Assembly: GCA_022414725.1 (NCBI GenBank) | Contig: CM039462.1 | Location: 7,122,084 to 7,186,083 of the forward strand | Reading direction: 5' to 3' | Length of the DNA stretch: 64,000 nt | DNA from: Microglena sp. YARC | Taxonomy: Eukaryota; Chlorophyta; Chlorophyceae; Chlamydomonadales; Chlamydomonadaceae | Shown: piece by piece, positions 6,663-63,600 of the stretch | Numbering within the stretch: position 1 is the first letter of the stretch | Layout: the number at the start of each line of letters is the position of its first letter | The notes under the pieces: model-generated | The model's input: only the letters and a program-made list of their open reading frames with translations | What the model was told of the DNA's origin: nothing | Database searches by the model: none | Program-made: the position numbers and the translations under genes

Positions 6663-9600
6663 CTTGGAAGGGGTGGTCTCACTGGCTGAAGCTTGGCTGC
6701 TTGGGCGATAGCTTCCCTGAGGCAAGACCTGGTTAGAGGTATGTGGGTATGCGGTTATGTCTGGAGGGTGGAAAGATGGATGGATGGACAGGTAGATAGG
6801 TAGGTGGATTTGGATGGGTGAGTACATTGATGGATACTTACGCAAATGAAATGGATGGGTGGATGAATGGATAAGCGGATGCATTTCGATGGATGGATGG
6901 GTGGATGGATGGATAAGCGGATGATTTTGCATGGATGGAATGGGTGATGGATGGATAATGATGCATTTCGATGGATGGATGGGTGGATGGGAAGTGTGAT
7001 GCGGATTTCGTATGATGGATGGGTGAAATGGTGGGATAGCGGGCATTTCGATGGATGGATGGGTGGTGGATGGATAAGCGGAGTGTGCATTTCGATGCAC
7101 TGGCATGGGTGATGGAATGGAGAGGGTGGACAAATGCTATCGCGCACTGAGATTAAGCATGGATGGGTGGTCTGAGGATGGATAAGCGGATGCATTTCGA
7201 TGGATGGATGGGTGGATGATGGGTGGTGGATGGATAGCGGATATTCGATTGGCCCATGGATGCGGGGGATGCATAGCGGGTATGCATTTTGATGGATGGA
7301 CTGGGTGGGATGGATGGATAGCGGATGCATTCGATGGATGGATGGGTGGATGGGTGGATGGATGGATAAGCGGATGCATTTCGATGGATGGATGGGTGGT
7401 TGGATGGATAAGCGGATGCATTTTCGATGGAATGGAGTGGGTGGTGGATGGATAAGCGGCATGTATTTCGATGACGGATGGATGGGTGGGTGGATGGATG
7501 GATAAGCGGATGCATTTCGATGGATGGATGGGTGGATTTAGAGGGGTGAGTACATTAATGGATACGCGGATGGATGGATGGATGGATTTGGAGGGGTGAG
7601 TAAATTGATTGGAATGGGGGTTGATGGATTGGAGGGTGAGTACAAAGATGGGCTTACGGATGGATGGGTCCAATTTAGTAGCTCCACTGGTGTTTGATAG
7701 GAACTGGAAATTCATTTTCTGTCCTTGCCCTTGTTTGTCACTGGGCGTGAAAGGTAATGATAACGCCTGATGGGGTGTGGTGTTAAGGGAGCCCGTCGTA
7801 CGCGGGTGGGGAGCGGTCTCCTACCTCAACTGGACAACTAGCTTATTGCCATGACGCGCGGTGACGACGACTGCAACGCCAAGGAGCGGACGGTAAGGGG
7901 GAGTTGAACCCCCGACTAACTTCTTTCATCCTCTAAGTGACTCAGTCTACCACTAGACCAATGTATTTCACTGTGGGCGCGAGGTTGAAGGAACCTCCCC
8001 GTTCGCTTGCACTGGGGAATGGTTACTATGATGGGTTTGGGTTTTACAGATGCTTACTGCTTGTGCGAGGCAGTTGGACTACCCGCGCGACAGCACGGAG
8101 GGAAGTTCTCTACATCTTCGAAGCGACAGCGTCTGATTGTGGGAATCTGACAAGGCTCAAACTGCAGACCTGTCAGGTTGATGGACTCTAACGGAACCAA
8201 CTAACTACTTGAGACTGAGTCACCACTCTCCCACTCTACTGCTGGTGCTCCCGCCCTTTGTGTGTGTGTGTGTGTGGTGGTGGGTGTGTGGGGTGTGTGT
8301 GGGGTGTGTGGTGTGGGTATGGGAGAGTGGCGGTGGGTGGGGTATGTGTTGTGTGCGTGAGTTTGGGAATCAGGCAAGGGCTCGACTGCAGACCTGTCAG
8401 GTTGATTGACTCTACTGAACCAACCAGCCTGAGCTTGAAACGATGTGTTTTTTGTCTTACCTTGGCAAAGGGGGCCAAGTCTGATGGGAGTACGAGGACG
8501 TTGGGAGGTTGACGTAAGTGTAGCTGCGACGCTTGGCTGCTGTCTAAGCAGGTGCCCACAGCAGCGGGGTAGATGGGGTAGAAGCTCCGTTGGCCTACCC
8601 ACGGAGTAGATGCCACTGCTGCCATTTCAGACGTCTGCCTCCTGTGTGTAGTGGTGTGATATGCCGTGTGTGTGTGTGTGGTTGGTGGTGTGACTCGGTG
8701 GTGTTGTATGTTACAGTCCAGGGAAAGCAGACCAATATTTGAAGGGACTTGCCCAACCGTGACAGGAAGGGCTAAAAAGAAATACTTGATGAACTGAACC
8801 CCAAGAGATACACGGTTTGCGGCCTTTGGGAGCGCGGATGGCCTGCCATGCGGCTGCCCCCTGTGTGCTGACGTGTGTGCGGGTGGCTCTGGTTCGGGGT
8901 GGTGTGCGTATTGTATACAGTCCAGGGAAAGGCCCAATAGGCTGAAGGACTGCCCAACCTGGCCGGAGCTTAGCAGACATCGAGAGGCGTCTAAAAAGAG
9001 AATAACTTGATCTTGATAGGACTGAACCCCAAACAATCGGTTTTTGCTTGCCTGCGTGGGCAACGTGGGGCCAAAGTAGCTTGCTGCCATGCGGTCCTGC
9101 CCCTGTGTGTGTGTGTGGTGGTGGTGGTGTATGTCAAAGTCCAAGGGAAGGCCAAATGGGCTGAAGGGACTCGCCCAATGTGACAGGAAGGGCTACAAAG
9201 AAACAGCGTTGATGAACTGAACCCCAAACAATCGGTGCTTTGCTTACCACGTGAGCAGCGGTACTAAAATTTTGTCAATTTGAGTCCAGCGCTTAAAGCA
9301 GCTGACGATCGTCAAATTGGTCACACTTCGTAGTGCAAAAAGCACAAAAACTGCGCACTGCGCCCACAGGGGGTTGAGGAAAAACCTGCCGTCACGAACG
9401 CGCAGTGGCGGCTCAAAAAGCGTGCGCCGAACAATCGCTAAGCTGCGCGCGCTTTGTAGTACCTCTGCACGTGAGACGCTGATGCTGCCATGCGGTCTTA
9501 GCCTCTGCTTGCCAGGCTACAGACATAAATAAAATAGGAACGCCTTACTACTACGCGGCGTGAGGTGAAGCGTGGTGCCAGCGCGTTTGCTTGCCTGGGG

Positions 9601-12600
9601 CCCACCACCTGCTTGCAGACATTTGGATACATAAATAGTACGCCTTATTACGTGTGTGTGAGGTTGAGGGGCCAGCCTGTTTGCTTGCCAAAAAGGAAGC
9701 AGTGGTCTTACCGCAGGAACTTAGCATGCTCCACACAAGATAGGTGCTGATAAACATCGGTGCTCCATGCGGACACCACCACCGCACCACTCGCAATTTA
9801 CATAGTGACGTCGTGACCCCCCCCCCCCCCCTCCAAAACCCATCCACACACGCAGCCCAAAAAGGAAGTAGTGGTCTTACCGCAGGAACTTTAGCATGCT
9901 CCACACTAGAAAGGTGCTTGATAACATCGGTGCTGCATGCGGACACCACCACTGAGTTCGACGCGTGTGTTGACACAGCGAAAGAGCATGGATTCTGGAT
10001 GCTGCTCACAGCTGCACCATCCATGCTCGCCGCCAGGGCCGCGGCCGCAGGGTTGGATGCAAATCCGGCGTGTCCAGCAGCAGCAGCTGAGGAAGAGGCC
10101 CTGAGGGGCATGGCAGGCTGGGGGAAGACTGGGAGGGCATGCGCGTCCCTAACGGAAGGCATTAGGGTCACATCGGCTGCTTAGGGTTCTGCTGCTGCAA
10201 GAGGAAAGGCGAGAAAGCACCTGCTCTTGGCACAAAGATCTTGTCGAAGGTGCAGTCAAGGGTGCCGCTCTTGATCAGCGGATGCTCGACATCGACAAAG
10301 GGGCCCATCAGGAGTAGCAGGTCGGGCTGCTTCTCTGCACGTGTGTGGGTGGGCGGTTCAGAGTGCGGGTAGGGTAGGGTGGAGAGGGGGGTTCTAGGGC
10401 AGAGTGTACATCGAACAAAGGGCCCATCAGGAGTAGCAGGTCAGGCCTGCTTCTCTGCAAATGTGTGGGTGGGGGGGTGGTTCAGAGAGGGGGGATGGGG
10501 GTTAACAGGGTGAGATCCTACATCAACAAAGGGGCCCATCAGGAGTAGCAGGCCTGGCTGCTTCTCTGCACGTGTGTGGGTGGTGGGGTGGTTCAGAGGG
10601 TGGGGAATGGGGGTTAATAGGGTGAGATTCTACATCAACAAAGGGGCCATCAGGAGTAGCAGGCCTGGCTGCTTCTCTGCACGTGTGTGGGTGGGGGGTG
10701 ATTCAGAGGGGGGGATGGGGGTTATAGGATGAGATCCTACATCAACAAAGGGGCCCATCAGGAGTAGCAGGCCTGGCTGCTTCTCTGCACATGTGGGTGT
10801 GTGCGTGGTTCAGAGGGTGGGTGGGGGGTGTTTAGAGGATGGGTGGAGGGTGGTTTGGAGGGTGGGTGGGGGAGGTTAGAGGATGGGTGGGAGGGTGATT
10901 CAGAGGGGTGGGTGGGTGGTTCAGAGGGTGGGTGGGAGGGGGGGTTCAGAGGGTGGGTGGTAGGGTGGTATGGTGGGAGTGGAATGGGAGGGTGGGTAAG
11001 AGGGTGGTGGGAGGGGGTTCAGAGGGGGTGGTAGGGTGGAGTGGATGGGAGGGGGGGGGGGGTAAGAGGGTGGGTGGAGGGGGGTTAATGGGGGTGAGAG
11101 TCTACATCAACAAAGGGGCCATCAGAAGTAGCAGGCCTGGCTGACTTCTCTGCACATGTGGGGTGTGGGGTGTGTGGGTGGGGAGGGTGGTTCAGAGAAG
11201 GGTGGGGGTGGTTTAGAGGGTGGGGTGGGAAGGGTGGTTTAGAGGGGGGGTGGGGGGTGATTCAGGGGTGGGGGTTAGAGGGTGGGAGGGGGGGTAAGAG
11301 GATGGGGTGTGAGGGGGGGTTCAGAGGGCGGGTGTAGGGTGGGAGTGGATGGGAGGGGGGGTTCAAGAGGGTGGGGTGTAGCGTTGGGAGGGGGGTATAT
11401 AGGGTGAGAGGGTGGTTTGGAGGATGGATGGGAGGGTGATTCAGAGGGGTGGGTGGGTGGGTGGGTGGTTCAGAGGGTGGTAGGGGGGGTGGTAGGGTAG
11501 GAGTGGATGGAAGGGGGGGTAAGAGGGTGTGTGGGGAGGGGGTTCAGAGGGGCGGGTGGGTAGGGTGGGAGGAGGGTTTATAGGGTGAGAGTCTACATCG
11601 ACAAGAGGCCATCAGGAGTAGCAGGTCTGGCTGCATCTCTGCACATGTGTGGGTGGTAGGGTGGTTTCAGAGGGGTGGGTTGGTGGGGTGGTGTGGGGGG
11701 AGTGGGAGGGGAGGTTAGAGGGTGGTTCAGAGGGTGGGTGGGAGGGAGGGTGGTTTAGAGGGTGGGAGGGAGTTTTTTTAGTTGGTCGGTGGGAGAGGGG
11801 TTTAGAGGGGGGGAGGTGTTTAGATGTGTGGGCACTGAGGTGGTTTTACTTAGCTGGATGGATGCTCATGTGTGTGTCTGTTGGTGCGTTTGTTTTGTGT
11901 GCATGCATGTGATCGTTTTGGCGCCTAGATGAGAGTGTTCAGGTGGGTGTCTTTCATTTTCATGTTAGAATGCGCATGCGCAACTAACATAGGTACTAAC
12001 ACTCACACATAATGCTCCCCACCCACCACACACAGGAACCCTCACACACACTCACACTCATGTGCTCCAACACCCACCCACACACAGGATCCCCCAAACA
12101 TAGGCAGAGACATACGCACACTCACACTCCCACCACACTGCTTACTCCCCCCCCCCCCCCCCCACACACACCTACCCACACCACCCCGACCCGTCGCATG
12201 CTGACAAACACCACACTCACACCCTCCCCACCTACCCATACCACCCCCACCTGTCGCATGCTTACAACACCCACACTCACACACCCCCACCTACCTACCC
12301 ATACCACCCCACCCGTCGCATGCTGACAACACCCACACTCACACCCACCACCCCACCCCCACCTCCCTACCATACACCCCCACCCATCGCAGGCTTACAA
12401 CAACCACACTCCCCACCCACCCCCACCTCCCTACCCATACCACCCCCCACCCGTCGCATGCTTACAACTTCCACACCACCCACCCCCACCTCCCTACCCA
12501 TACCACCCCCACCCGTCGCATGCTTACAACTTCCACACCCACCCACCACCTCCCTACCCATACCACCCCCACCCGTCGCATGCTTACAACTTCCACACCC

Positions 12601-15600
12601 ACCCACCCCACCTCCCTACCCATACCACCCCACCGTCGCATGCTTACAACTTCCACACCACCCACCCCCACCTCCCTACCCATACCACCCCACCCGTCGC
12701 ATGCTTACAACTTCCACACTCACCCACCCCCACCTACCCATACTACCCCACCCGTCGCATGCTACAACTTCCACACTCACCCCACCCCACTCCTACTCAT
12801 ACCACCCCCACCCGTCGCAATGCTTACAACTCCACCCACACCCCACCCCCACCTCCTACCCATTACCACCCCCACCCGTCGCATGCTTACAACTTCCACA
12901 CTCACCCACCCCCACCTCCCTACCATACACCCCACCCTTCGCATGCTTACAACTTCACACTCACCCCAACATCCACACTTCTCCCTACCCATACCACCCA
13001 CCCGTCGCATGCTTACAACTTCCACACACCCCCACCCCCACCTCCTACCATACCACCCACCCGTCGCATGCTTACAACTTCCACACTCACCCACCCCCCA
13101 CACTCCCTACCCATACCACCCCCACCCGTCGCATGCTTACAACTTCCACACTCACCCACCCCCACCTCCCTACTCATACCACCCCCACCCGTCGCATGCT
13201 TACAACTTCCACACCCACCCCCACCTCCCTACCCATACCACCCCCACCGTCGCAATGCTTACAACTTCCACACTCACCCACCCCCACCTCCCTACCCATA
13301 CCACCCCCACCCGTCGCATGCTTACAACTTCCACACTCACCCACCCCACCTCCCCTACCCATACCACCCCCACCCGTCGCATGCTTACAACTTCCACACT
13401 GCACCACACCCCACCTCCCTACCCATACCACCCCACCCGTCGCATGCTTACAACTTCCACACTCACCCACCCCACCTCCCTACCCATACCACCCCCACCG
13501 TCGCATGCTTACAACTTCCACACTCACCCACCCCCACCTCCCTACCCATACCACCCCCACCCGTCGCATGCTTACAACTTCCACACTCACCCACCCCCAC
13601 CTCCCTACCCATACCACCCCCACCCCCGTGTGCATGCTTACAACTTCCAACTCACCCACCCCCACCTCCCCTACTCATACCACCCCACCCGTCGCATGCT
13701 TACAACTTCCACACTCACCCACCCCCACCTCCCTACCCATACCACCCCACGTCGCATGCTTACAACTTCCACACTCACCACCCCCACCTCCCTACCCATA
13801 CCCCCCACCCGTCGCATGCTTACAACTTCCACACTCACCCACCCCCACCTCCCTACCCATACCACCCCCACCCGTCGCATGCTTACAACACCCACACTCA
13901 CCAGAGCAGAACTGCAGGAGCTCATTGAGAGGCTCAAAAAGCATGTCGCCCGTGGTGGTATATGGGCCTGCTGCCACCACCATGGTCAGGGGAGCGGCCT
14001 CCTCGTCCCCGCCCTGCTGCAGCCTGGACTTCGTGGTGGCCCTAGCTGGCAAGTGGGTGACCAGCTCCTTGGCCAAGAAGGTATTCCCAGTGGGGTTATT
14101 ACCCTGAGCGGCGACGACCTGGGATGTGATTTAATGTGATGGGTTGGTTGTGATGGGTTGTGATGGTTTGTGATGGGTTGGTTTGTGATAGGTTGGTTTG
14201 TGATGGGTTGGTTTGTGATGAGTTGGACTGGGTTGTGCAAGGGTGTGAGGGAGGTAGTCTGTCGTGTTGGCAGGGGTGTGGGAGGTAGTAAGTAGTGTTG
14301 TGCAGGGGTGTGAGGGAGGTAGTGTGTTGAGTTGGTAGAGGTGTGAGGGAGGTAGTGTGTTGTGTTGGCAGGGGTGTGAGGGATGAAGACAGGTGGAAGG
14401 TATTGGCGCATCTGTAGCATGAGAGGAGTGGAGAGCAACAACCAGTATCACCTCTTTCGTCAAGGTCTGTCACACACACACACAAACTTGGGGTGGGGCG
14501 GGGTGGTTGTGGGGGTGGGGGGTGATCGTGGGGGCGTGTGGGGTGGGTGATGGGTGGGTGGGGGTGGGTGGGGTGGATGGGGTGGGTGATCGTGGTAGCA
14601 GCACATGGGACGAGGAGATAGCAATAACCAGTCTCACCTCTTTTTAAGTAGATCAGACTGGGGATGTCAAGTATAATGAAGTCAAGTATAATATCAAGTA
14701 TATAGTATATAATATCAAGTATATAGTATATAATATCAAGTATATAGTATATAATATCAAGTATAATATCGAGGATACATATACATATATATACTATTAC
14801 AATTATAACTAATTTAATTGAACTTATTACAATAATAATACTACAATTTTAAAACGGATATTTAATCATACCATCATACATTACACTGATATATCGTATG
14901 AAATTGCACGATATACCCAGGAGTAAAAAATAAAACTGCAAAAACGTTGAGCCTAAAAAACCTGAGGGGGGCTGACCCCCCCCCCCCCCCCCTTTAAATA
15001 AAAATACTCTTTTTTACAACTTAGAAATGGATTCAGAGGTTTTAAAGTGTGGCGCATTCAATGGCGTCCTTGGATTTTTAGTGCAGGGAAAACACGATAG
15101 TCAAAACCTGCCCCCCCCCCCCCCAGGTTGTCCAAGTACTAGAGCCACCCTTCGTCGTCGCTGGAGGCGGCCATGTAAAAATATGTAAAAATCAGACCCA
15201 GCACAGACACTCTAAAACGCAATTTGAAAACAAAACGGTGCACATGGTCTGTTTTTTAATCTTGATTCTGGTCTGGTCACTGCCCCTTAAGGTCTATCTG
15301 TCTGGCTTCAACTGCTTGGCAATCTTCCCCATGAACTCTAACTCCTTGGTATGTAGCTCCCACAGACCAGTTGGCGCCACCTCTCGACCGTACTCCCCCT
15401 TCCAGTGGGCAGCCATGCTGTACTTCCGGATGTAATGAGCACACGAGGGGCACTCAAGTGGGGTGTTGGTGCACTTTTCTCCATCCTTGGCACAGGGGGC
15501 CTGGCTGGAAAGACAGAAAGAGAATGCCGAGAGGCGCGGAAAAGGAAAGGAACAGAAGAACGGCGGCGTTTCAATTCAATTCGGTTGCTGTTGGTTTGTG

Positions 15601-21098: not shown

Positions 21099-21129
<31 letters not shown>

Positions 21130-49751: not shown

Positions 49752-50751
49752 NNNNNNNNNNNNNNNNNNNNNNNNNNNNNNNNNNNNNNNNNNNNNNNNN
49801 NNNNNNNNNNNNNNNNNNNNNNNNNNNNNNNNNNNNNNNNNNNNNNNNNNNNNNNNNNNNNNNNNNNNNNNNNNNNNNNNNNNNNNNNNNNNNNNNNNNN
49901 NNNNNNNNNNNNNNNNNNNNNNNNNNNNNNNNNNNNNNNNNNNNNNNNNNNNNNNNNNNNNNNNNNNNNNNNNNNNNNNNNNNNNNNNNNNNNNNNNNNN
50001 NNNNNNNNNNNNNNNNNNNNNNNNNNNNNNNNNNNNNNNNNNNNNNNNNNNNNNNNNNNNNNNNNNNNNNNNNNNNNNNNNNNNNNNNNNNNNNNNNNNN
50101 NNNNNNNNNNNNNNNNNNNNNNNNNNNNNNNNNNNNNNNNNNNNNNNNNNNNNNNNNNNNNNNNNNNNNNNNNNNNNNNNNNNNNNNNNNNNNNNNNNNN
50201 NNNNNNNNNNNNNNNNNNNNNNNNNNNNNNNNNNNNNNNNNNNNNNNNNNNNNNNNNNNNNNNNNNNNNNNNNNNNNNNNNNNNNNNNNNNNNNNNNNNN
50301 NNNNNNNNNNNNNNNNNNNNNNNNNNNNNNNNNNNNNNNNNNNNNNNNNNNNNNNNNNNNNNNNNNNNNNNNNNNNNNNNNNNNNNNNNNNNNNNNNNNN
50401 NNNNNNNNNNNNNNNNNNNNNNNNNNNNNNNNNNNNNNNNNNNNNNNNNNNNNNNNNNNNNNNNNNNNNNNNNNNNNNNNNNNNNNNNNNNNNNNNNNNN
50501 NNNNNNNNNNNNNNNNNNNNNNNNNNNNNNNNNNNNNNNNNNNNNNNNNNNNNNNNNNNNNNNNNNNNNNNNNNNNNNNNNNNNNNNNNNNNNNNNNNNN
50601 NNNNNNNNNNNNNNNNNNNNNNNNNNNNNNNNNNNNNNNNNNNNNNNNNNNNNNNNNNNNNNNNNNNNNNNNNNNNNNNNNNNNNNNNNNNNNNNNNNNN
50701 NNNNNNNNNNNNNNNNNNNNNNNNNNNNNNNNNNNNNNNNNNNNNNNNNNN
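49752..50751. other. Assembly gap of 1000 N
   Basis: A placeholder of exactly 1000 N starts inside a 120-bp unit, so array length is underestimated and the remaining SBDS exons, if any, may be lost here. A different gene begins on the other side. Confidence 0.99.
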
Positions 50752-52737: not shown

Positions 52738-55700
52738 GTGAGGACCATTATCTTAGTGCCTGGACTTGACCTGACTTCTCCCCCCCCCCCCCCCTCCCAT
52801 TGCTGGCGGCCTAAGCGTATGTGACCATTAGGACCCTCTTTGATAGTGGGGTAGGCCCATGCCCGTTTGGGCTCCACGTCGTACCCATTCCATGCTCATC
52901 ACTGCTGCAATTGAGTCCACCTCCCTCGAGACGGCGGAAGCATCGCCTAATGCTGGCGGAAGCTGGAAGCAAGTTACTCAATCAGTTGGAGCCAGCCAGG
53001 GTGGTGGTCAGGCTCAGACGTAGGGCATAAACATACATGTTGTATTAGTATGATGATCTCAAGTTGGCAATGCAATGGCCAAGGAGTCTATCCCTCTCCC
53101 GCGGCGGGGGAGCATCTGTTGATACAGAGACAGCTTGGCACAGAAACTCACCCGGTTGAGCCCAGCCAGGTGGGTAGGCCAACGTTAGGGCCTAAATGAA
53201 TATAAATGGCTGTACTCGCTGCGTCCTCTGATTATCCAAGTCGCAATGCAATGGCCAATGAGTCCTATTCTCTCTCCCGAGTCGGCGGAGCGTCGTGATG
53301 TGACGGAAGCTGGAGCGCTCACTCAGGTATGGGCCCAGCCAGGTGGATGGGCCAGACGTAGGGTATGAACGTAAATGTGTATAATTATGATCTCGTTTAC
53401 ACCCCGGGGCAGCCTTACTAAAGCTACCAGGACATTGCCCCTAGTGGGATACCAGGGTACTCCATGACCAAATTGGCCAGTGCCGCTTTAGTCGGACTTG
53501 AAAAACAAACAAAACTGCGCTTTGTAGTGCTAAAAGCGCAAAAAATTGCTTGCTGCGCTGCACAGGGGGGTGCAAAAAACCTGTGCAAAAAGCGCAGTGG
53601 GGCTCCAAAAAGGCAGCGCGCCAAGCGCGCAAAAAGCGCCGCTTGGCAAATACCCTGAGGAGGACCAGAACCTGACACGCGTACCAGATTCCCACTTTCT
53701 GAACTGAACAAATAATCTTTGAAAAAAGGCCTGCTCGTCTCCCGTTTAAATAGGGCAATTAAACTCCAACACCCAACAAGGCCATTAGTAAAACAGCTGC
53801 AGAGTATTAAAAAAAGCAATTAAAATTGCAACAGCAATCGAATAACAAGTAAAATGACAATTAACTCGCAATTTTAGTATAACAGTTTAAATAACAATGG
53901 AATCACAGTTAAAGAGTAATTAAAGAATTACCTTAATAACTAGACTTAAAATAACATCGAAGGGATCAATCAAATAGCAATTAATAGCAAATCAAATACA
54001 GTTAAAACAAAAATGGAAATATCGATTGAAATACAATTATAAGAACACTGCTTTTGGCACTCTGCCTCCTGACCCACTGCACCCAGATCCCAAGTGGCCA
54101 GCTGTACTAATCACGCTGGACAATCCCTCTGAGCGGATACCCTTACAAGGTGGAGGTACACCTGGAGGTGAAGGTAGCTGCCCAATGCCATCAACGACTG
54201 CAGTGGTCATGAACCTGCTCCAGCCACATGGAACAATGTGTCTGCCCAGTATGTGGGACAGAGGGGAGGGGGGGGGGGGGGGCGGGGGGAGAAGGAGGGA
54301 GGGGAGGAGGAGGGGAAGGTAGCTGCCGAGGTGTATCAACGACTGCGAGTGGTCATGAAACCTGCTCCAGCATCTGGAAAATGTGTGTGCATGTGCCTGG
54401 TATTATGGACAGAAGGGAGGTGGGGGAGGGAATGGAGCGGGGATGGACAGACGAGAATGGAGGCAATATCAGTGAGCTCCTTTTGCTCAAGCATTTGTGT
54501 GTGTTGCCAATAACTCATATACCCCTGGTTTCGTGGGTATTGCACAGGAAGGACTTGGCAATTGGAAAGACGGTGAGCAGCCCAGAGTTTGGCTAGAAAC
54601 CATTTTAACAATTCAACCCACCCGGAACTCGAACCAACCCAACCCAACCCAACCCAACCCAACCCAACCCAACTCCCAACCCAACCCGACCCAACCCAAC
54701 CCAAGATCGCTGTAGGTTATAGATCCTTTTGTTGGGCATTGACAGTCTCGTGAAATCATGCATTGATAATGATTAAGTTTTGAATCATATGCTACTGATT
54801 GTTTGTCTTATAACCCGTAGTGCAGGTTCTTCCTCTATTGGGGCAAGCCTTATTGGATACCCGCAAGAGCAAAGCAGATCGGAATACATATGTTACTGCT
54901 TTTGTCTTCTGCCACTAGGCACCACGCTCGACTCCTCTCTGTTTGGACATGACCTATTTCGTGTGGATACCGTGCACATTAACGTGGAACCGAAGACATA
55001 GGTGTTAATCATTTGGATATGTTATTGCCTAAGTTGCTAACCACCTCGGTTTATCAGTACTGCTTGAAAGCTCCTTTGGTGGCTTGACGACTCGTCGACG
55101 CGACATTCGGTTGTGGATACCATGCAAGAAATCAACTTTGGATAATATGTTACCGATTGTTTGCCTACGAGCCCCACAGTGCTGCTGAGCTCCTTTCTGC
55201 TAATTGACATTCGTGAGAGGCATTGATTCCATGCAAGAAATCAAACTTTGATAAATATGTTTACGATTGTTTTCCACATTGTGTTTGCTCTCCCAACATG
55301 CTGAGCACAGTTGCTGACGCCATTCTTCTTGCTTGTGTGAGATGGCATGAACATTCAAGGTGGCATATGGCAAGAAAGCAAAGTTGTGGTATTTGCAACA
55401 TTGGAGATAATATGTTACCGATGCTGTTTGCCACACCCAGACCACAGTGCTGAGGCTCCTTTGTTGGAGCATGACATTCGTAAGTGGATACCTGCAAGAA
55501 ATAAACAGTCGAGATTGGAATAATATGTTAGTTACCGATTGTTTGCCCTACACCCACAGTGCTGAGCTCTTTGTTGGGCCAGCATGACTCATTCGTGTGG
55601 ATACCTGCAAGAAATCAACTTTGGATAATATGTTACCGATTGTTTGCCTACACCCACAGTGCTGAGCTCCTTTGTTGGGCATGACATTCGTGTGGATACC

Positions 55701-58700
55701 TGCAAGAAATCAACTTTGGATAATATGTTACCGATTGTTTGCCTACACCCACAGTGCTGAGCTCCTTTGTTGGGCATGACATTCGTGTGGATACCTGCAA
55801 GAAATCAACATTGGATAATATGTGCTACGGGGCGATTGTTTGCCTACACCCATCAGTGCTGAGCTCCTTTGTTGTGGGTGGCATGACATTCGTGTGGATA
55901 CCTGGCAAGAAATCAACATTGGATAATATGTTACCGATTGTTTGCCTACACCACAGCTGTCCTATGACATTCGTGGAAAGTGGATACCGCATAGAATCAT
56001 CAAACGATTGTTTGCCTACACCCACAGTGCTGAGCTCCTTTGTTGGGCAAGTCATTCAAGTGGATACCTGCAAGAAATCAACATTGGATAATATGTTACC
56101 GATTGTTTGCCTACACCCACAGTGCTGAGCTCCTTTGTTGGGCAAGTCATTCAAGTGGATACCTGCAAGAAATCAACATTGGATAATATGTTACCGATTG
56201 TTTGCCTACACCCACAGTGCTGAGCTCCTTTGTTGGGCAAGTCATTCAAGTGGATACCTGCAAGAAATCAACATTGGATAATTAGTTTATAGTTTATAGT
56301 TTAGAATTTAGAATTTATAATTTAGAATTTAGAATTTAGAATTTATAGTTTAGAATTTATAATTTATAATTTATAACCGATTGTTTGCCTACACCCACAG
56401 TGCTGAGCTCCTTTGTTGGGCAAGTCATTCAAGTGGATACCTGCAAGAAATCAACATTGGATAATATGTTACCGATTGTTTGCCTACACCCACAGTGCTG
56501 AGCTCCTTTGTTGGGCAAGTCATTCAAGTGGATACCTGCAAGAATCAACATTGGATAATATGTTACCGATTGTTTGCCTACACCCACAGTGCTTGAGCTC
56601 CCTTTGTTGGGCAAGTCATTCATAGTGGATACCTGCAAGAAATCAACATTGGATAATATGTTACCCGCAAGATTGTTTGCCCTACACTCCACAGTGCTGA
56701 GCTCCTTTGTTGGGCATGACATTCGTGTGGATACCTGCAAGAAATCAACTTTGGATAATATGTTACCGATTGTTTGCCTACACCCACAGTGCTGAGCTCC
56801 TTTGTTGGGCAAGTCATTCAAGTGGATACCTGCAAGAATCAACATTGGATAATATGTTACCGATTGTTTGCCTACACCCACAGTGCTGAGCTCCTTTGTT
56901 GGGCAAGTCATTCAAGTGGATACCTGCAAGAAATCAACATTGGATAATATGTTACCGATTGTTTGCCTACACCCACAGTGCTGAGCTCCTTTTTTGCGGC
57001 AAGTCATTCAAGTGAGATACCTTTGCAAGAAATCAAAACATTGGATAATATGGTTACTGATTGTTTGCCTACACCCACAGTGCTGAGCTCCTTTGTTGGG
57101 CAAGTCATTCAAGTGGATACCTGCAAGAAATCAACATTGGATAATATGTTACTGATTGTTTGCCTACACCCACAGTGCTGAGCTCCTTTGTTGGGCAAGT
57201 CATTCAAGAGGATACCTGCAAGAAATCAACATTGGATAATATGTTACCGATTGTTTGCCTACACCCACAGTGCTGAGCTCCTTTGTTGGGCAAGTCATTC
57301 AAGTGGATACCTGCAACAGAAATACATCTATATGTACGATTGTTTGCCTCACCCACAGTGCTGAGCTCCTTTGTTGGGCAAGTCATTCAAGTGGATACCT
57401 GCAAGAAATCAACATTGGATAATATGTTACCGATTGTTTGCCTACACCCACAGTGCTGAGCTCCTTTGTTGGGCAAGTCATTCAAGTGGATACCTGCAAG
57501 AAATCAACATTGGATAATATGGTACTTATTGCTTGCCTGCACCCACAGACTAGATTATACTAATTTTGCAGGGCTCCTTTGTGGGCCTTCTTATACTAAT
57601 ACACTTACACTTACTTTGCAGGGCTCCTTTGTTGGCCTTTTTATACTAATACACTCACACTCACACACTCACACACACACTCACACTCACTTTGCAGGGC
57701 TCCTTTGTTGGGCTTGACTGTGGCGTGGACACAGCGACCATCAGGAATGCGTCATGTGACGAGGGTAGCCAGAAGTGGTCTCCCATCACTGGCCCAAACT
57801 GCGAAGTATTTGCTGTGTGCGTCTGCCACCCTGACCCAAGCTCTCCACATGGAGGCAATACATGCAAGTACAAGGAGGATATTCCTTCAATTGACCAGTT
57901 TGTGGTGATTTGCCATGAGGGTTTCATCCTGAAGGTGGGTACCAGGGTACTTCCAGAAGGGGGGTGGGGGCTCCGCCCAAAACGAGAGTTTGTGGTGATT
58001 TGTCATGAAGGTTACATCCTTAAGGTGGGTACCAGGGTACTTCCAAGCGCGCGGGGGGGCTCCGCCCAAAACGAGAGTTTGTGGTGATTTGCCATGAAGG
58101 TTACATCCTGAAGTTGGGTACCATGGTACTTCCAAGCGCGCGGGGAGGTTCCGCCCAAAACGAGAGTTTGTGGTGATTTCCCATGAAGGTTTCATCCTGA
58201 AGGTGGGTACAGTCAAACCGAAGCACCAGTAGCAAAAATGGAGCAAAACAAAGCCAAGCAGTGCAAATCAAAACAAAGCAACACATCATACCCAAAGTAA
58301 ACAAAGCAAAACAAACCAAAACAAACCGAAACAAAGCAAAACAAAGCCAAGCAAAACAAATCAAAACAAATCAAAACAAAGCAACACATCATACCCAAAG
58401 TAAACAAAGCAAAACAAACCAAAACAAACCAAACCCAACCAAAACGAAGCAAAACAAAGCAAAACAAAGCAACACATCATACCCAAAGTAAACAAAGCAA
58501 AACAAACCAAAACAAACCAAAACAAAGCAAAACAAAGCAAGACAAAGCAAAACAAAGCAAAACAAACCAAAACAAAGCAAAACAAAACAAAACAAAGCAA
58601 CACATCATACCCAAAGTAAACTAAGCATATGTAAACCAAAACAAACCAGATCAAGCAAAACAAAACCATTACTAACATACAAAGCCATACAAAACAAAAC

Positions 58701-61700
58701 AAAATCATTCCAAACAAAACGGAACAAAATGAAACCAAAGTCAAACCCAAGGCAACCCGAGCTTATGTAGAATGTACAGGGTTCTTCGACAGATGACATA
58801 GTGGTTCTTACTACTGGAATGAAGGTGGCTACAGGAAACCAATCGAAACCAAGCCAAACCAAAATAGGCCAAACCAAACCAAACCAAACTGAGCTAGGCC
58901 ATAGAAAAGAAAAGAAAAGAAAGATCACTAACCGTTTGTGTGACTTACCAGGGTTCCTCAATGGAGGACGGAGTGTTTCTGTCTAGTGGAGTGAAGCTGG
59001 CTACATGAACTCAATCGCAACCAAGCCAAACCAAAATAGGCCAAACCAAACCAAACAGAGGTAGGCCAAACAAAACAAAAAAAACAAAAACCCCTCATCG
59101 TTTGTGTTACTTATCAGGGTATCTCGACAGAGGACGGAGTGTTTCTGTCTAGTGGAGTGAAGCTGGCTACAGGAATATAGGAAACCAATCTAAACCAAGC
59201 CAAACCAAAATAGGCCAAACCAAACCAAACCAAACCAAACCAAACCAAACCAAGCGAGGCCAAAACAAAATAGGCTAAACCAAACCAAACTAAACCGAGC
59301 TAGGTCAAACAAAACAAAAGAAAAGAAAGACCACCAACCATTTGTGTTACTTACTAGGGTTCCTCAACAGAGATTGAAGTGATTGTTTCTACTGGAGAGA
59401 AGCTGGCTACTGGAGACCAGTCAAAACCAAACCAAACCAAAGTCAACCCCAAGACTAAGCCAGAGTATTCTCATTCTGCAGGGTTCCTCATCAGAACATG
59501 GGATGGTTCTTTCTTCAGGAGTGAAGGGAGCTGCAGGAGACCTAACAAAACCAATCAAAACCAAACCAAGCCAAACCTGAGTCAAACCCAAGACTAAGCA
59601 AGAGTATTCTAATTCTGCAGGGTTCTCAGCAGAGAATGGGGTGCTTCTTTGTACCGAAGTGAAGGTAGCTACAGATGACCAATCGAAACCAATAGAAACC
59701 AATCGAAACCAAACCAAGCCAAACCTAAGTCAAACCCAAGACTAAGCAAGAGTATTCTAATTCTGCAGGGTTCCTCGACAGCAAATGGGGTGATTCTGTC
59801 TACTGGAGTTAAGGTGGCTACAGGGGGCACCTGCCACCGCCCTCCCCGTCGCGGGACCTCCGGAGGAATGGTCTTCTTCTTTTGTTTGCTATCTATCTTC
59901 TTGGCTGCTGGCTTGGCAGTTGCGGGCAAGCATGGCTGGGCATACTATCAGGTTGGTGGTGATGCTAGGATTTAACCTGGCCTAGCGCAACGTACATACA
60001 CACACACAGGTTACACATACACACACAAAGACATACACATACACACAGAGAGACATACACATTCACACAGAGAGACATACGCATACACACAGACAGGCAG
60101 ACACATATGCACACACAGACATACACATACACACATGCAAACTATCAGGTTGGTGATGATGCAAGGGTTTAGCTATTCACTATTCACACACTCATATGTA
60201 ATACGTGTACCGCTATTCGCTATTCGTCCAATCATATGTAATACTTGTACCGCTATTCGCTATTCACACAATCATATGTAATACTTGTACCGCTATTCGC
60301 TATTCACACAATCATATGTAATACTTGTACCGCTATTCGCTATTCACACAATCATATGTAATACTTGTACCGCTATTCGCTATTCACACAATCATATGTA
60401 ATACTTGTACCGCTATTTGCTATTCACACATTCATATGTAATACTTGTACCGCTATTCTCTATTCACACATGCATATGTCATACGTGTACCGCTATTCGC
60501 TATTCACACATTCATATGTCATACGTGTACCGCTATTCGCTATTCACACATTCATATGTAATACTTGTACCGCTATTCTCTATTCACACGTTCATGTGTA
60601 ATACCTGTACCGCTATTGGCTATTCACACATTCATATGTAAAACATGTACTGCTATTCACTATTCACACTCATATGTAATACTTGTACCGCTATTCTCAA
60701 TTCACACGCGCATATGTAATACTTGTACCTCTATTCGCTATTCACACACTCATGTGTGATACTTGTACCCCTATTCGCTATTCACACACTCATATGTCAT
60801 ACTTGTTGCGCTATTTGCTTTTCACACTAATATGTAATACTTGTACCACTATTTGCTATTCACACTAATATGTAATACTTGTACCACTATTTGCTTTTCA
60901 CACTAATGTGTAATACTTGTACCACTATTTGCTATTCACACTGATATGTAATACTTGTACCGCTATTCGCTATTCACACATTCATGTGTAATACTTGTAG
61001 AGCTATTCGCTATTCACGCACTTGTATGTAATACTTGTACCGCTATTTGATATTCGATATTCACTCTCATATGCTCTTCTTGTTCCGCCTCTGTTTTCCA
61101 CCATAGGCCCAAGGAATTGCCGATTTCTTATGATTATGATAGATTATGGTCTGATAGATTATGTATATGATAGCTTATGATATTGATAAGTTGTGATTAT
61201 GATTATTATATCTGATGATGTTGATACTTGCACCGCTACTTTAGCTCACATTCTCTACTCACGCTGCATATCATTTCCACCACAGGCCCAACGATTTGGC
61301 GATAGATTCTGATTATGACCTTGAAATCTCATGATCTTGAAAGCTTGTGGATTTATGATGTTTTGATATGTATACACTGTTTTTAAGGAGTCCCTCCCGC
61401 CTGGAGGGTGACACTTACTATGTCTGCCATGGTGACTTTCCCCAGCTGCGGCGTACGGGAGGGTCCCCTTAACACCACGCCCCTCCAGGCGTTATCTTTT
61501 TTTTTTTTTTTACACTATTTTGATGTTGATACTTGCACTGCTACCTACTCTCACATTCTCTACTCACACCGCTTATCATTTCCATCATAGGCCCAATGAT
61601 TTGGCGGTAGATTCTGAGTATGACCTTGATATCTCATGATCTTGATAGCTTGTGGATTTATGATATATATTGATATACACGCACACGCTTGTGGATATAC

Positions 61701-62318
61701 GCACGCTTATGGATTTATGATGTATTGATACACATACACTGTTTTTTGGCGGAGCCCCCCTTCTGTCCCCCAGTGTTACCCATTTGTCAGTTCGACCGAC
61801 CGACCATCCATCCATCCATCCATCCGTCTGACCGCAATGAAGCCTGACACGTCAGACAACGGTCTCGTAACTAACTCGCTTCCGTTGCCACCTGTCGATC
61901 CCTCGCGATCACTCTCCGCCATTTTTTAGCGTCGCAGGCGACGCTGCATAGAACTTTTTGATATTGGTACTTGCACCGCTACCTACTCTCACATAATCTA
62001 CTCACACCGCTTATCATTTCCAGCATAGACCCAATGATTTGGCGATAGATTCTGATTATGACCTTGATATCTCATGATCTTGATAGCTTGTGGATTTATG
62101 ATATATATTGATATACACGCACTGTCTTTGATATTGGTACTTGCACCGCTAAGTAAACCCACATAAACCACTCACACTGCTTATCATTTCCACAACAGGC
62201 CCAACGATTTGCCGAGGCTGGGGGTTACTCCGAGCTCCCTGGTGCCACATCTATATTGTCATCCTTCCTCGGTGCTTTTGTGAAGAAAGGGGGTAGCAGC
62301 AACAATGACCCTTGGTAG
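51941..62318 (+). CDS. Cys-rich EGF-like single-pass membrane protein (3' part)
   Basis: I do not recognise the family. Exons at 51941-52737, 57698-57934, 59769-59951 and 62199-62318 encode Cys-rich extracellular sequence, an EGF-like segment (CPNDCSG ... CQCAFAADSTFGVDCSG), a segment CVCHPDP, one transmembrane helix (MVFFFCLLSIFLAAGLAVA) and a cytoplasmic tail of about 50 residues with GGYSELPG. YSEL fits the YxxPhi sorting motif, so traffic to endosome/vacuole or endocytosis is plausible. PGTWRFFNFSVEEGQRFL ... DLELYVKF resembles prepeptidase/PPC-type beta sandwiches, but weakly. The start lies upstream, in or before the gap. The last three exons are each phase 0, and each has an edge copied into a neighbouring array. 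It may be a VPS10- or protease-like receptor. This is unproven. Confidence 0.62.
52885..53400. repeat. ~175-bp tandem repeat, 3 copies
   Basis: GCAATGCAATGGCCAA.GAGTC, CTCTCCCG.G.CGG.GGAGC, GGAAGCTGGA.GC, CAGCCAGG.GG.GG.C and ACGTAGGG.ATAAACATA occur in order in three diverged units downstream of the EGF-like exon. Confidence 0.85.
53470..53660. repeat. Dispersed AAAAAGCGC repeat, partner at 9290-9500
   Basis: It shares TGTAGTGC.AAAAGC.C, CACAGGGGGG and GCGCAGTGG.GGCTC with the segment at 9290-9500, same orientation. It is in an intron here too. Confidence 0.6.
53740..54025. repeat. AT-rich AATAACA/CAATTAA degenerate repeat
   Basis: Loose repeats of 15-25 bp such as GCAATTAA.A...AATAACA fill this stretch. 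No coding similarity. Confidence 0.6.
54026..54600 (+). repeat. Candidate small exon with tandem copy
   Basis: 54026-54165 is open (FGTLPPDPLHPDPKWPAVLI) and could be an exon of the membrane-protein gene, but the family is unknown and splice sites are unclear. GAAGGTAGCTGCC, TCAACGACTGC, GTGGTCATGAA and CCTGCTCCAGC repeat at 54170-54260 and 54315-54405, separated by a GGAGGGG run. One frame reads CSSHMEQCVCPVC, which is EGF-like, so this may again be an exon edge and its copy. Confidence 0.4.
54613..54705. repeat. (ACCCA)n microsatellite
   Basis: Nearly uninterrupted CCAACCCAACCCAACC repeat. Confidence 0.95.
54925..57540. repeat. 95-bp array from the 57698 exon's acceptor edge, ~26 copies
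   Basis: Unit: GATACCTGCAAGAAATCAAC, ATTGGATAATATGTTACCGA, TTGTTTGCCTACACCCACAG, TGCTGAGCTCCTTTGTTGGG, CAAGTCATTCAAGTG. The CACAG..CTCCTTTGTTGGGC part with GTGTGGATAC matches the true acceptor and exon start at 57691 (GCAGGGCTCCTTTGTTGGGC, then GGCGTGGACAC). Copies before 55500 are diverged and those at 56020-56280 and 57060-57290 almost identical. A TTTAGAATTTATAATTTA insertion of about 90 bp interrupts it at 56283-56375. Confidence 0.95.
57541..57697. repeat. Two extra acceptor copies before exon 57698
   Basis: TTTGCAGGGCTCCTTTGT occurs at about 57566, 57617 and at the true exon, with CTTATACTAATACACTTACAC between the first two. All three are good acceptors, so the functional choice is set only by the open frame that follows the last. 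Confidence 0.9.
57698..57934 (+). CDS. Membrane-protein exon, Cys-rich, phase 0/0
   Basis: Acceptor CTTTGCAG and donor GTGGGTAC bound 237 nt (79 codons). It encodes GSFVGLDCGVDTATIRNASC, then NCEVFAVCVCHPDPSS and ends DQFVVICHEGFILK. There are eight cysteines and one N-glycosylation-type site (NAS), consistent with a disulfide-rich extracellular module. Confidence 0.82.
57935..58215 (+). repeat. 88-bp donor-edge copies of exon 57698, 3 extra
   Basis: GTTTGTGGTGATTTGCCATG, AAGGTTACATCCTGAAG|GTGGGTACC and CTCCGCCCAAAACGAGA repeat at about 57989, 58077 and 58165. Each includes the last ~37 nt of the exon, the donor and a short intron with GGGGGCTCCGCCC. The sequence is well conserved, so all could bind U1. 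Confidence 0.94.
58216..58750. repeat. AAACAAAGC / AACAAACC repeat
   Basis: A-rich pentamer-like repeats with CACATCATACCCAAAGTAAA recurring four times (about 58281, 58384, 58471, 58603), giving a higher-order period near 90-130 bp. Minus ORFs rich in Phe/Leu/Cys are false. Confidence 0.92.
58751..59768 (+). repeat. Six decayed acceptor-edge copies of exon 59769
   Basis: AGGGTTCCTC.ACAGA followed by 45-55 nt resembling GTGTTTCTGTCTAGTGGAGT, GAAGCTGGCTAC.GGA occurs at about 58770, 58952, 59118, 59359, 59481 and 59621, before the real exon at 59769. Between copies lie AACCAAACCAAACC repeats. The last two copies carry ATTCTGCAG acceptors as good as the true one. Confidence 0.93.
59769..59951 (+). 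CDS. Membrane-protein exon with transmembrane helix
   Basis: Acceptor ATTCTGCAG and donor GTTGGTGG bound 183 nt, 61 codons, phase 0/0. It reads GSSTANGVILSTGVKVATGG, then TCHRPPRRGTSGG, then the helix MVFFFCLLSIFLAAGLAVA and GKHGWAYYQ. A single hydrophobic span followed by a basic residue fits a type I membrane protein. Confidence 0.83.
59952..60172. repeat. ACATACACAC repeat and one donor-edge copy
   Basis: A CA-rich tract (ACATACACATACACACAGAG) is followed at 60138-60172 by AACTATCAGGTTGGTGATGA, a copy of the exon 59769 donor edge (TACTATCAG|GTTGGTGGTGA). Confidence 0.88.
60173..61065. repeat. 40-bp minisatellite, about 22 copies
   Basis: Unit CGCTATTCGCTATTCACACA plus ATCATATGTAATACTTGTAC. 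The first ~10 copies are near-identical and later ones diverge. It lies in the last intron. ORFs with SYVILVPLF are false. Confidence 0.96.
61388..61515 (+). mobile_element. SINE-like element sharing the SINE 3' domain
   Basis: It starts GGAGTCCCTCCCGCCTGGAG and ends CCCTTAACACCACGCCCC, TCCAGGCGTTATC followed by a T-run of 15. The last ~45 nt match the 3' end of the three tRNA-headed SINEs (CTTAACACCACGCCCCACCA, GGCGTTATC), but the 5' half is unrelated, has no A/B box that I recognise, and is itself partly self-complementary (CGCCTGGAGGG / CCCCTCCAGGCG). Confidence 0.78.
61745..61950. mobile_element. Probable insertion with GGCGGAGCCCCCC
   Basis: A GC-rich block (TTTTTGGCGGAGCCCCCC ... CATCCATCCATCCATC ... 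GCGTCGCAGGCGACGC) interrupts an acceptor-edge unit. The GGCGGAGCCCCC motif also occurs at 6280 and, inverted, in the 57935-58215 units. It ends in the palindrome GCGTCGCAGGCGACGC. Nature uncertain. Confidence 0.5.
62199..62318 (+). CDS. Membrane-protein last exon, cytoplasmic tail
   Basis: Acceptor CACAACAG, 39 codons and a TAG at 62316-62318. It reads AQRFAEAGGYSELPGATSIL, then SSFLGAFVKKGGSSNNDPW. YSEL is a YxxPhi-type sorting signal. A short C-terminal segment FLGAFVKKGG is amphipathic. The last ~60 nt and the stop are repeated downstream. Confidence 0.82.
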   Translation, partial: AQRFAEAGGYSELPGATSILSSFLGAFVKKGGSSNNDPW

Positions 62319-63600
62319 TTCTTGGTGGTAGTAGTCAACATTATTGGAAGTGGTCAACACTATTATGTCATCCTTCCTAGGTGCTTTTGTGAAGAAAGGG
62401 GGTAGCAGCAACAATGACCCTTGGTAGTACTTGGCGGTAGTAGTCATCATTATTGGTAGTGTTCATCCTATATACAATAGCGCGTTGTCCGTGACGGTTT
62501 TAGCCGCTTTTGGCTTAGGCAGTTGGGCTTTTGGTTTCATATCTTGCTGACCTGTCGCTGACGTGGCCACGGGGGTCTTCCCGTCGGTACGAGGGGCTCA
62601 AATGCTAGTCACTATAATGTCATCCTTCCTAGGAGCTGTCGTAAAGAAAGGGGGCAGCAGCAGCAACAATGACCCTTGGTAGTAGTTGGTCATGGTAGTG
62701 TTCATTACTATCATGTCATCCTTCCTAGGTGCTTGCGTGGAGCGGCGCGGCGGCAACAATGGCCCTTGGTAGTGGGTCGTGGTAGTGTTCATTACTATAA
62801 TGTCATCCTTCCTAGGTGCTTGCATGGAGCAGCGTGGTAGTAGGTGGTGGTAGTGTTCATCACTATTATGTCATACCTGCTAGGTGCTTTCGTGAAGAAA
62901 GGGGGCAGCAGCAACAATGACCCATGGTAGTAGTTGGTAGTAATGGTCATCAGTATTGGTAGTGTTCATCACTATTATGTCATGCCTGCTAGGTGCTTTC
63001 GCAAAGAAAGGCGGCGGCAGCAGCAACAATGGCACTTGGTAGTAGTTGGTTGTGGTAGTGTTCATCACTATTATGTCATCCCTCCTAGGCGCTTTCGTGA
63101 AGCGAGGCGGCGGCAGCAGCAACAATGACCCTTGGTAGTAATTGGTGGTAGTGTTCATCACTAATATGTCATCCTTCCAAGGAGCATTCGTGAAGAAGGG
63201 GGCAGCAGCAACAATGTACCTTGGACGTGGTCATCACTATTATGTCATACCTGCTAGGTGCTTTCGTGAAGACAGGGGGCGGCAGCAGCAACAGTGACCC
63301 TTGGTAGTAATTGGTGGTAGTGTTCATCACTATTATGTCATCCTTCCAAGGAGCATTCGTGAAGAAGGGGGCAGCAGCAACAATGTACCTTGGACGTGGT
63401 CATCACTATCATGTCATACCTGCTAGGTGCTTTCGTGAAGAAAGGGGGCGGCAGCAGCAACAATGGCCCTTGGTAGTAGGTTGTGGTAGTAGTTGGTGGT
63501 AGTGGTCATCACTTGTTGTATTGATCATCACTAAAATACGATACCTGCTAGGAGCTTTCGTGAGGTGAGGCGGCAGCAGCAACAATGGCCCTTGTAGTAG
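62319..63600 (+). repeat. ~11 extra copies of the last coding segment and stop
   Basis: TGTCATCCTTCCTAGGTGCT, TTCGTGAAGAAAGGGGGCAG, CAGCAACAATGACCCTTGGT, AGTAGTTGGTGGTAGTGTTC recurs with stops at about 62425, 62678, 62767, 62925, 63040, 63135, 63223, 63303, 63392, 63473 and 63595. Spacing is 80-160 bp. CTAG|GTGCTTTCGTG replaces CTCGGTGCTTTTGTG of the true exon, creating an acceptor-like CTAG. It would form 3' UTR if transcribed, or provide alternative last exons. Confidence 0.92.
62466..62612. mobile_element. Unrelated insertion inside the terminal array
   Basis: About 145 bp (ATATACAATAGCGCGTTGTC ... GGTACGAGGGGCTCAAATGC) interrupts a unit between GTTCATC and CACTATAATG. It has GCCGCTTTTGGCTTAGGC-type inverted bases but no clear terminal repeats. 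Confidence 0.5.

What the first reader, a model, noticed from the sequence alone, without database searches (positions are those of the whole stretch)
8461..63600. Exon-edge satellites: tandem arrays spanning exon-intron junctions in all three genes
At least ten exon boundaries carry a neighbouring tandem array whose unit contains a piece of that exon's edge, the intact donor or acceptor, and adjacent intron. Instances: SBDS exon 4 donor; POLA2 exon 5 donor and acceptor, exons 7, 9 and 11 acceptor, exons 8 and 10 donor; membrane-protein exons 57698 (both sides), 59769 (both sides) and 62199 (acceptor side and stop side). Random intronic satellites would not keep starting at splice junctions. 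Known background is that tandem duplication across AGGT can create introns, and introner-type elements carry splice signals. Here the duplication is recursive, gene-independent and acts on both exon sides. That suggests a biased mechanism, such as repair or template-switching at splice-junction R-loops, or a G-rich motif at donors. I know of no described system of this kind at this density.
Basis: partly seen in the sequence, partly recalled or inferred. Interest (0 to 1): 0.95.

Follow-up and report, generated by a model that had tools for sequence, protein, structure and literature searches.

The report
Tandem-duplicated exon edges in algal introns
In a green alga with large introns, the ends of exons have been copied, with their splice sites, into rows of repeats inside the neighbouring introns, in this window and in seven of eight other genes examined, most likely because introns grow by local DNA duplications that ignore exon borders.

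Summary
In the window 14 of 29 exon edges tested (13 of 28 splice junctions, one stop codon) have a same-strand copy within 3 kb, always on the intron side; 1 of 1,740 shuffled probes reaches that level.

It is not confined to the window, which lies in a 568-Mb assembly. In eight chaperonin genes on four contigs, 29 of 68 junctions show it.

Bias? Repeat coverage passes through the junction without a peak, and units reach about 10-75 nt into exons. Yet edges are hit about twice as often as matched intron points, and 39 of 98 array families contain an edge against 7.3 expected. Unbiased duplication starting in short introns can reproduce the junction frequency, with copies per event as a free parameter, but gives 0.24-0.29 of families against 0.40.

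Best reading: introns growing by recurrent tandem duplication, tolerated across exon edges. A splice-linked bias is not needed, nor excluded.

The parts
28211..28374 (-). POLA2 exon 1 (start codon to donor)
   Evidence: tblastn with P0001 and P0002; no edge copy
22109..22162 (-). POLA2 54-nt exon ([18 protein letters not shown])
   Evidence: frame, GT/AG and likeness to P0002 KGQVVSTLNE; P0001 lacks it
22125..22926 (-). acceptor-edge copies of exon 22109-22162
19629..19763 (-).
   Evidence: P0001 100%
19695..20809 (-). acceptor-edge array, about 160-bp unit, 5 copies diverging away from the exon
   Evidence: rho 0.97; P0001 contains one copy as an exon
17825..19659 (-). donor-edge copies of exon 19629-19763
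   Evidence: five copies at 10 edits or fewer; six loosely placed copies
12155..13902 (-). 63-bp array next to the donor of exon 13902-14118; holds a donor-like GTGAGTGTGG but no exon sequence: NOT an exon-edge array
   Evidence: 12 edits; 0 spanning copies
9881..10334 (-).
   Evidence: P0001 and P0002
10285..11684 (-). acceptor-edge array of exon 9881-10334, about 111-bp unit, 6 copies
9685..9954 (-). donor-edge duplication of exon 9881-10334, one extra copy at offset 169, about 74 nt of exon
8612..9120 (-). acceptor edge of exon 8461-8633 with one marginal copy about 466 bp upstream
   Evidence: 10 edits; by eye the copy encodes GQDRMAA as P0001 has there
30880..31130 (+). SBDS exon ending ...AKQQALE at donor GAG|GTAAGT
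   Evidence: Pfam SBDS domains; tblastn with P0095, P0097
31080..49751 (+). SBDS donor-edge array: 120-bp unit = last 51 nt of exon + donor + 69 nt of intron, 146 copies matched, ends at an N gap
57698..57934 (+). third gene exon
   Evidence: open phase-0 frame, GT/AG
54720..57734 (+). acceptor-edge array of exon 57698 (95-bp unit; up to 35 nt of exon; AG lost in 21 of 23 aligned copies)
57895..58214 (+). donor-edge array of exon 57698-57934, 89-bp unit, 38 nt of exon
59769..59951 (+). third gene exon with a transmembrane-like stretch (by eye)
   Evidence: open phase-0 frame, GT/AG
58770..59823 (+). acceptor-edge array of exon 59769-59951, 6 copies diverging away from the exon
   Evidence: rho 0.93
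59940..60171 (+). marginal donor-edge duplication of exon 59769-59951 (12 nt of exon, offset 197)
61095..62219 (+). acceptor-edge copies of exon 62199-62318, long unit, 10-17 nt of exon
62240..63604 (+). stop-side array: last 62-68 nt of coding sequence + stop + downstream DNA

Best explanation
Introns in this green alga grow mainly by local tandem duplication of segments of roughly 50-450 bp, followed by further copying. The duplications ignore exon-intron structure. One that lies wholly in an exon, or takes in a whole exon, would damage the message and is removed by selection. One that overlaps an exon end is harmless: the outermost donor (or the last acceptor) still bounds an intact exon, and all extra copies, exon scrap and splice site included, lie inside the intron. 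Repeated over time from the short introns usual in relatives, this makes kilobase introns with donor-edge copies from the 5' end and acceptor-edge copies towards the 3' end. Shown: the anatomy, its recurrence in other genes, its one-sidedness, the coverage profile without a junction peak and the absence of detectable selection on copied splice sites. Inferred: growth from short introns, harmlessness, and choice of the outermost splice site.
For: 14 of 29 edges in the window and 29 of 68 in eight chaperonin genes. In the window, copies of hit edges are only in direct orientation and nearby. Coverage of complex 40-mers rises inside the exon (0.14 at -100 nt) to the junction (0.43) and stays at 0.30-0.50 in the intron, with no peak (broadly the same shape). 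Exon overlap is variable, about 10-75 nt. The gene with almost no intronic repeats (0.03) has 0 of 7 edge copies, though across eight genes the correlation is not significant (rho 0.62, P 0.10). Donors and acceptors are hit alike. Splice dinucleotides in best copies are intact in 36 of 42, context 0.81. POLA2 introns are 698-3567 bp and 24 chaperonin introns without a gap in domain coordinates have a median of 1043 bp, against medians of 198-343 bp in core-Reinhardtinia algae (PMC8226300, passages). Simulated unbiased duplication from 120-230 bp introns with about two copies added per event gives 0.43-0.50 of junctions hit; observed 42 of 96.
Against: The number of copies per event was free: with one copy the same simulation gives 0.69-0.75, with four 0.28-0.31. 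At two copies it gives 0.24-0.29 of families with an edge; observed 0.40, 39 of 98. An earlier simulation with more copies per event fell short: 3.3-4.4 of 18 POLA2 junctions for 60-250 bp introns against 7 observed, and 1.1-1.6 of 5 edges in the third gene for 60-400 bp introns against 5. The about two-fold one-sided excess is not fully explained by slower divergence of the exon copy, since exon and intron halves of the copies are about equally similar (0.892 and 0.868, P 0.39). Ancestral intron length in this lineage was not measured, and no transcript data show which splice site is used.
Confidence: 0.68

Rival explanations
1. Exon edges are preferred sites of duplication, for instance through R-loops, paused transcription or splicing-linked breaks at junctions, so that introns are actively fed from both ends.
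For: Family excess 39 of 98 against 7.3 expected; one-sided excess about two-fold in chaperonin genes at 4 to 12 edits, and 7 of 19 against 0.168 and 6 of 6 against 0.385 in the window; edge arrays in 15 of 24 chaperonin introns.
Against: No coverage peak at the junction; breakpoints scattered inside exons; donors and acceptors hit alike (13 of 33, 16 of 35); a stop-codon edge is hit too; the unbiased model can reproduce the junction frequency; copies with 2 edits or fewer show little excess, 4 of 68 against 0.045-0.052 per junction, though at 4 edits it is already 12 of 68, 1.9-2.0-fold.
Confidence: 0.22
2. Exon edges look enriched partly or wholly because the exon copy is held constant by selection, so that old duplications stay recognisable longer there than inside introns. 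This is compatible with the best explanation and concerns only the excess.
For: Little excess among the youngest copies in the chaperonin genes: 1.1-1.3 at 2 edits or fewer, 2.3-2.5 at 6. In the window POLA2 stays between 1.9 and 2.6 at all thresholds, and the third gene goes from 0 to 3.2 and back to 2.2.
Against: Exon and intron halves of detected copies are about equally diverged; intron-only probes 30-50 bp from the junction are covered nearly as often as the junction (0.37-0.40 against 0.43).
Confidence: 0.15
3. The copied edges are functional, as decoy or alternative splice sites that regulate splicing.
For: 36 of 42 best copies keep GT or AG; P0001, a predicted protein, uses one acceptor copy as an exon.
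Against: Retention is no higher than the context (0.81 against 0.73 over 11 families, P 0.28); in the SBDS array GT and GTAAGT rank at the 36th and 44th percentile of conservation; one array has lost AG in 21 of 23 copies.
Confidence: 0.06
4. The arrays are assembly artefacts.
For: Parts of the window seem to carry indels against P0001, the SBDS array is noisy and ends in an N gap, and no raw reads were available.
Against: Copies differ from the exon by 0-10 edits in 40, a spread that collapse or stutter of one sequence would not make; the pattern recurs in genes on four contigs; a variant copy is present in P0001, whose sequence the window does not encode letter for letter, though P0001 may come from a version of the same assembly.
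Confidence: 0.03

Closest known systems
Tandem genomic duplication across an intron-exon boundary (potato RdRp intron; PMC4974935, passages seen)
   Same: A tandem duplicate that contains the 3' end of an intron, the acceptor and the 5' end of the exon.
   Different: There a single duplication that creates a new intron using a cryptic donor; here multi-copy arrays at either intron end in many genes, enlarging introns.
Internal tandem repeats (minisatellites) at exon-intron boundaries of human genes in segmental duplications (PMC2812944, passages seen)
   Same: Minisatellites lying across exon-intron boundaries and changing gene structure; 27 intron modifications reported.
   Different: Average 30-bp units repeated four times in recent primate duplicates, discussed as a source of novel introns and alternative splicing; here units of about 50-450 bp with an exon end and its splice site, at about two in five junctions sampled.
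Rogers-type intron gain by duplication of an exonic AGGT segment (reviewed in PMC3443670, passages seen)
   Same: Tandem duplication supplies splice sites without changing the message.
   Different: There the duplicated DNA is exonic and a new intron arises; here the confirmed units span a boundary.
Human introns from tandem arrays (Zhuo et al. 2007; seen only as a title in the reference list of PMC3488318)
   Same: By its title, tandem arrays linked to intron structure.
   Different: Paper not held; comparison rests on the title alone.
Introners / introner-like elements (features recalled; named in PMC4974935)
   Same: Repeated units carrying splice signals.
   Different: Introners are dispersed among genes; within the window these copies are strictly local and tandem.
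Intronic minisatellites in general
   Same: Head-to-tail arrays of units of tens to hundreds of bases.
   Different: The unit here holds an exon end with its splice site.

Membership tests
Boundary-crossing tandem genomic duplication | duplicated segment spans an exon-intron boundary | tested here: met
   13 of 28 splice junctions in the window, 29 of 68 elsewhere
Boundary-crossing tandem genomic duplication | direct, nearby copies | tested here: met
   same strand and intron side; no distant or opposite-strand copies in the window outside the SBDS array
Boundary-crossing tandem genomic duplication | intact message through use of the outermost splice site | not testable with these tools
   no RNA data; reading frames are consistent
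Rogers-type AGGT intron gain | duplicated segment is wholly exonic | tested here: not met
   the spanning copies contain intron as well as exon sequence
Rogers-type AGGT intron gain | a new intron position arises | not tested
   exon structures of relatives were not available
Introners | near-identical copies dispersed in many genes | tested here: not met
   window only: no copy beyond the local array on either strand; not searched genome-wide
Introners | target-site duplications | not tested
   none looked for
Minisatellite | head-to-tail array with unit above about 10 bp | tested here: met
   Tandem Repeats Finder

The most novel reading that the evidence does not exclude
Exon-intron junctions are active seeds of DNA amplification in this alga: a transcription- or splicing-linked process keeps duplicating DNA across exon ends, the exon staying as constant master copy, so that introns grow from both ends by recurrent edge duplication.
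Probability: 0.2. Interest if true: 0.9.

Novelty: new variant of a known kind. Interest (0 to 1): 0.6.

Why it matters
It offers a concrete, countable route by which introns lengthen, and suggests that exon edges can be multiplied many times without harm. It would make intron growth datable copy by copy, gives a natural test of how a spliceosome picks one of many near-identical splice sites, and explains a class of gene-model errors: P0001 includes an array copy as an exon. If the two- to five-fold edge excess proves to be mutational, it would tie gene transcription or splicing to local DNA amplification.

Tried and rejected
A simple coverage comparison first suggested no enrichment at all. 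I dropped it as the sole test because interior coverage is inflated by copy number, and used a one-sided control and family counts. Both show an excess.

My first POLA2 model held a false exon (27723-27769) and a false intron (10177-10220). Both were removed after comparison with P0001 and P0002. Slow divergence of the exon copy as the whole cause of the excess was not supported. Outward decay of copies, as a sign of repeated seeding at the exon, is clear in two of seven families with at least four copies (rho 0.97 and 0.93) and not in the other five. A search for the third gene found nothing.

Dropped before counting: in the chaperonin set 70 junctions were written down and two were not found by string search. 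Gene E exon 2 and gene J exon 3 were left out as ambiguous. Three of 11 recognised multi-exon clusters (D, H, I) were not fetched. One search counts 28 donor-to-acceptor intervals, of which four span gaps in domain coordinates and may hide exons; one search repeats the control without them (24 kept; the excess is unchanged). The SBDS array is not in the family count. P values are exploratory: thresholds were varied and neighbouring points are not independent.
Full report
WHAT THE WINDOW IS. It is nuclear DNA of a green alga: G000:C1:7122084-7186083 of a 568,105,699-base assembly in 2,390 contigs. POLA2 lies on the minus strand and SBDS on the plus strand. Their Astrephomene homologues carry consecutive gene numbers on a contig of the same length (Agub_g15160 and Agub_g15161), which suggests an alga near the volvocalean greens (inference). 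The species was not identified. P0001, a predicted POLA2 protein from EukProt, matches most window exons at 98-100% and differs where the window seems to carry indels. It comes from the same or a very near genome in another sequence version. A third gene (exons 57698-57934, 59769-59951, 62199-62318) has open phase-0 frames and, by eye, a transmembrane-like stretch. It has no detected homologue and no Pfam match.

THE OBSERVATION. For each of 29 exon edges (28 splice junctions, one stop codon) I took the 40 bases centred on the edge and looked for copies within 3 kb. Fourteen have one with at most 10 edits, always on the intron side. Of 1,740 shuffled probes one reached that level. For these 14 edges no copy is on the other strand of the window, and none is more than 5 kb away except along the SBDS array. 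That array repeats a 120-bp unit made of the last 51 nt of the exon, its donor and 69 nt of intron; 146 copies were matched. Array copies read MHVKVDP where the exon reads MHFNVDP and the Astrephomene relative IHFNLDP, so the exon is the source and the array the derivative.

IT RECURS IN THE GENOME. A search with the chaperonin family PF00118 gave 64 matches. I fetched eight of the 11 multi-exon clusters that I recognised in that list, on contigs C1, C2, C3 and C5. Of 70 junctions defined by frame and GT/AG, 68 were located, and 29 of those have an intron-side copy. None has an exon-side copy at 10 edits or fewer. Seven of the eight genes have at least two such edges. The eighth, with almost no intronic repeats (0.03), has none of seven. 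One search lists 24 introns with edge copies (16 chaperonin, 8 from the window). In the 11 that have both kinds, donor copies always precede acceptor copies; for example one 1,807-bp intron has donor copies to position 1,203 and acceptor copies from 1,393. Edge arrays at the two ends of an intron tend to occur together (8 both, 3 donor only, 5 acceptor only, 12 none of 28 intervals, P 0.05).

IS IT BIASED TO JUNCTIONS? (a) Coverage: in the chaperonin genes the fraction of complex 40-mers with a local copy is 0.14 at 100 nt inside the exon, 0.31 at 40, 0.43 at the junction and 0.30-0.50 in the intron. The window gives broadly the same shape. There is no peak. (b) Matched control: an intron point that is unique on one side has a copy on the other side with probability 0.20; junctions have 29 of 68, a 2.1-fold excess, P about 2e-5; without a complexity filter 0.22 and 1.9-fold. 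Leaving out four intervals that may hide exons gives 22 of 48 against 0.19, 2.4-fold. In the window POLA2 has 7 of 19 against 0.168 (P 0.03) and the third gene 6 of 6 against 0.385 (P 0.003). These P values are exploratory. The excess is about two-fold at most thresholds and slight among the youngest chaperonin copies (4 of 68 at 2 edits or fewer; 12 of 68 at 4, about two-fold). (c) Family counts: 39 of 98 array families in ten genes contain an edge against 7.3 expected if each unit were placed at random along the present genes. Interior families are easier to merge or overlook, so this ratio is likely an upper bound. (d) Model: random duplications on a gene that starts with 120-230 bp introns, rejecting those inside or containing an exon, with about two copies added per event, give 0.43-0.50 of junctions hit and 0.24-0.29 of families with an edge. 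Copies per event is a free parameter: one copy gives 0.69-0.75 of junctions, four give 0.28-0.31. Genes that start with 1.5-kb introns give 0.10-0.32 and 0.10-0.13. Observed are 0.44 (42 of 96) and 0.40. A first simulation with more copies per event fell short: 3.3-4.4 of 18 POLA2 junctions for 60-250 bp introns against 7, and 1.1-1.6 of 5 edges in the third gene for 60-400 bp introns against 5. So arrays placed at random in introns that were always long fit badly, growth from short introns can explain most of the excess, and a residual factor of about 1.4-1.7 in the family count is unexplained.

SHORT ANCESTRAL INTRONS are plausible. Core-Reinhardtinia algae have median introns of 198-343 bp (PMC8226300, passages seen), and Limnomonas has a mean of 788 bp (PMC11228838, passages seen). 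Here POLA2 introns are 698-3,567 bp, the median of 24 chaperonin introns is 1,043 bp, and the SBDS array alone runs 18.6 kb to a gap.

SELECTION ON THE COPIES. Copied splice dinucleotides are intact in 36 of 42 best copies, against a context value of 0.81 (P 0.56), and exon and intron halves of the copies are about equally diverged. In the SBDS array the donor is conserved like the rest of the unit. I find no sign that the copies are kept or removed for their splice sites. Outward decay from the exon is clear in two of seven families.

MECHANISM. The best reading is intron growth by tandem duplication that does not see exon borders, filtered by selection on the message. A process aimed at splice junctions is the main rival. 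Against it: no coverage peak, scattered breakpoints, equal rates at donors and acceptors, and a hit at a stop codon. For it: the residual excess. The rivals are not all mutually exclusive, so their confidences need not add to one.

KNOWN BACKGROUND. A tandem duplication crossing an intron-exon boundary is described for a potato gene, and the same paper cites multiple 24-bp exonic duplications in fission yeast (PMC4974935, passages seen). Minisatellites at exon-intron boundaries that change introns are described for human genes in segmental duplications (PMC2812944, passages seen). Tandem genomic duplication is a recognised route of intron gain (PMC3443670, passages seen). Ten library searches, of which I saw capped lists of titles and abstract openings, showed none that describes multi-copy exon-edge arrays as a general feature of a genome's introns. 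One listing on minisatellites and splicing in C. elegans (PMC4039745) was not opened. The library lacks most subscription papers, and two likely relevant PNAS papers (Zhuo 2007; Gao and Lynch 2009) were not held.

LIMITS. No RNA, no raw reads, no close relative's introns, one gene family plus three genes, and hand-set exon edges.

Noticed in passing
L019-L028 (about 100 kb upstream of the window): Dense long reading frames on both strands, local-repeat fractions of 0.10-0.45 against 0.53-0.86 over most of the window, and a primase/helicase-looking frame about 98.9 kb upstream: it may be an endogenous giant-virus-like insertion. The label is recalled; no family search was run.
   Followed up: no
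7759-7793, 17172-17206, 23873-23907 (+), 61462-61496 (-): Four copies of a dispersed element sharing GATAACGCCTGGTGGGGCGTGGTGTTAAGGGAGCC with up to 3 mismatches, three of them followed by a tRNA-like stretch by eye; ARAGORN calls no tRNA. Possibly a tRNA-derived SINE.
   Followed up: partly
24945-26975: 29-bp satellite inside a POLA2 intron; related stretches at about 65-72% identity occur elsewhere in the genome, the strongest on C4 near 13.84-13.86 Mb.
   Followed up: partly
15297-15505 (-): Cysteine-containing open frame inside a POLA2 intron ([28 protein letters not shown]...), not part of POLA2 and without a Pfam match above cut-off.
   Followed up: partly
49752-50751: 1,000-base N gap at the end of the SBDS array; the rest of SBDS after ...KQQALE was not found in the window.
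   Followed up: partly
56286-56376: A TTTATAA/TTTAGAA short-repeat burst sits inside one unit of the 95-bp array.
   Followed up: no
28211-31130: SBDS and POLA2 are neighbours here, and their Astrephomene homologues have consecutive gene numbers: a conserved gene pair.
   Followed up: no
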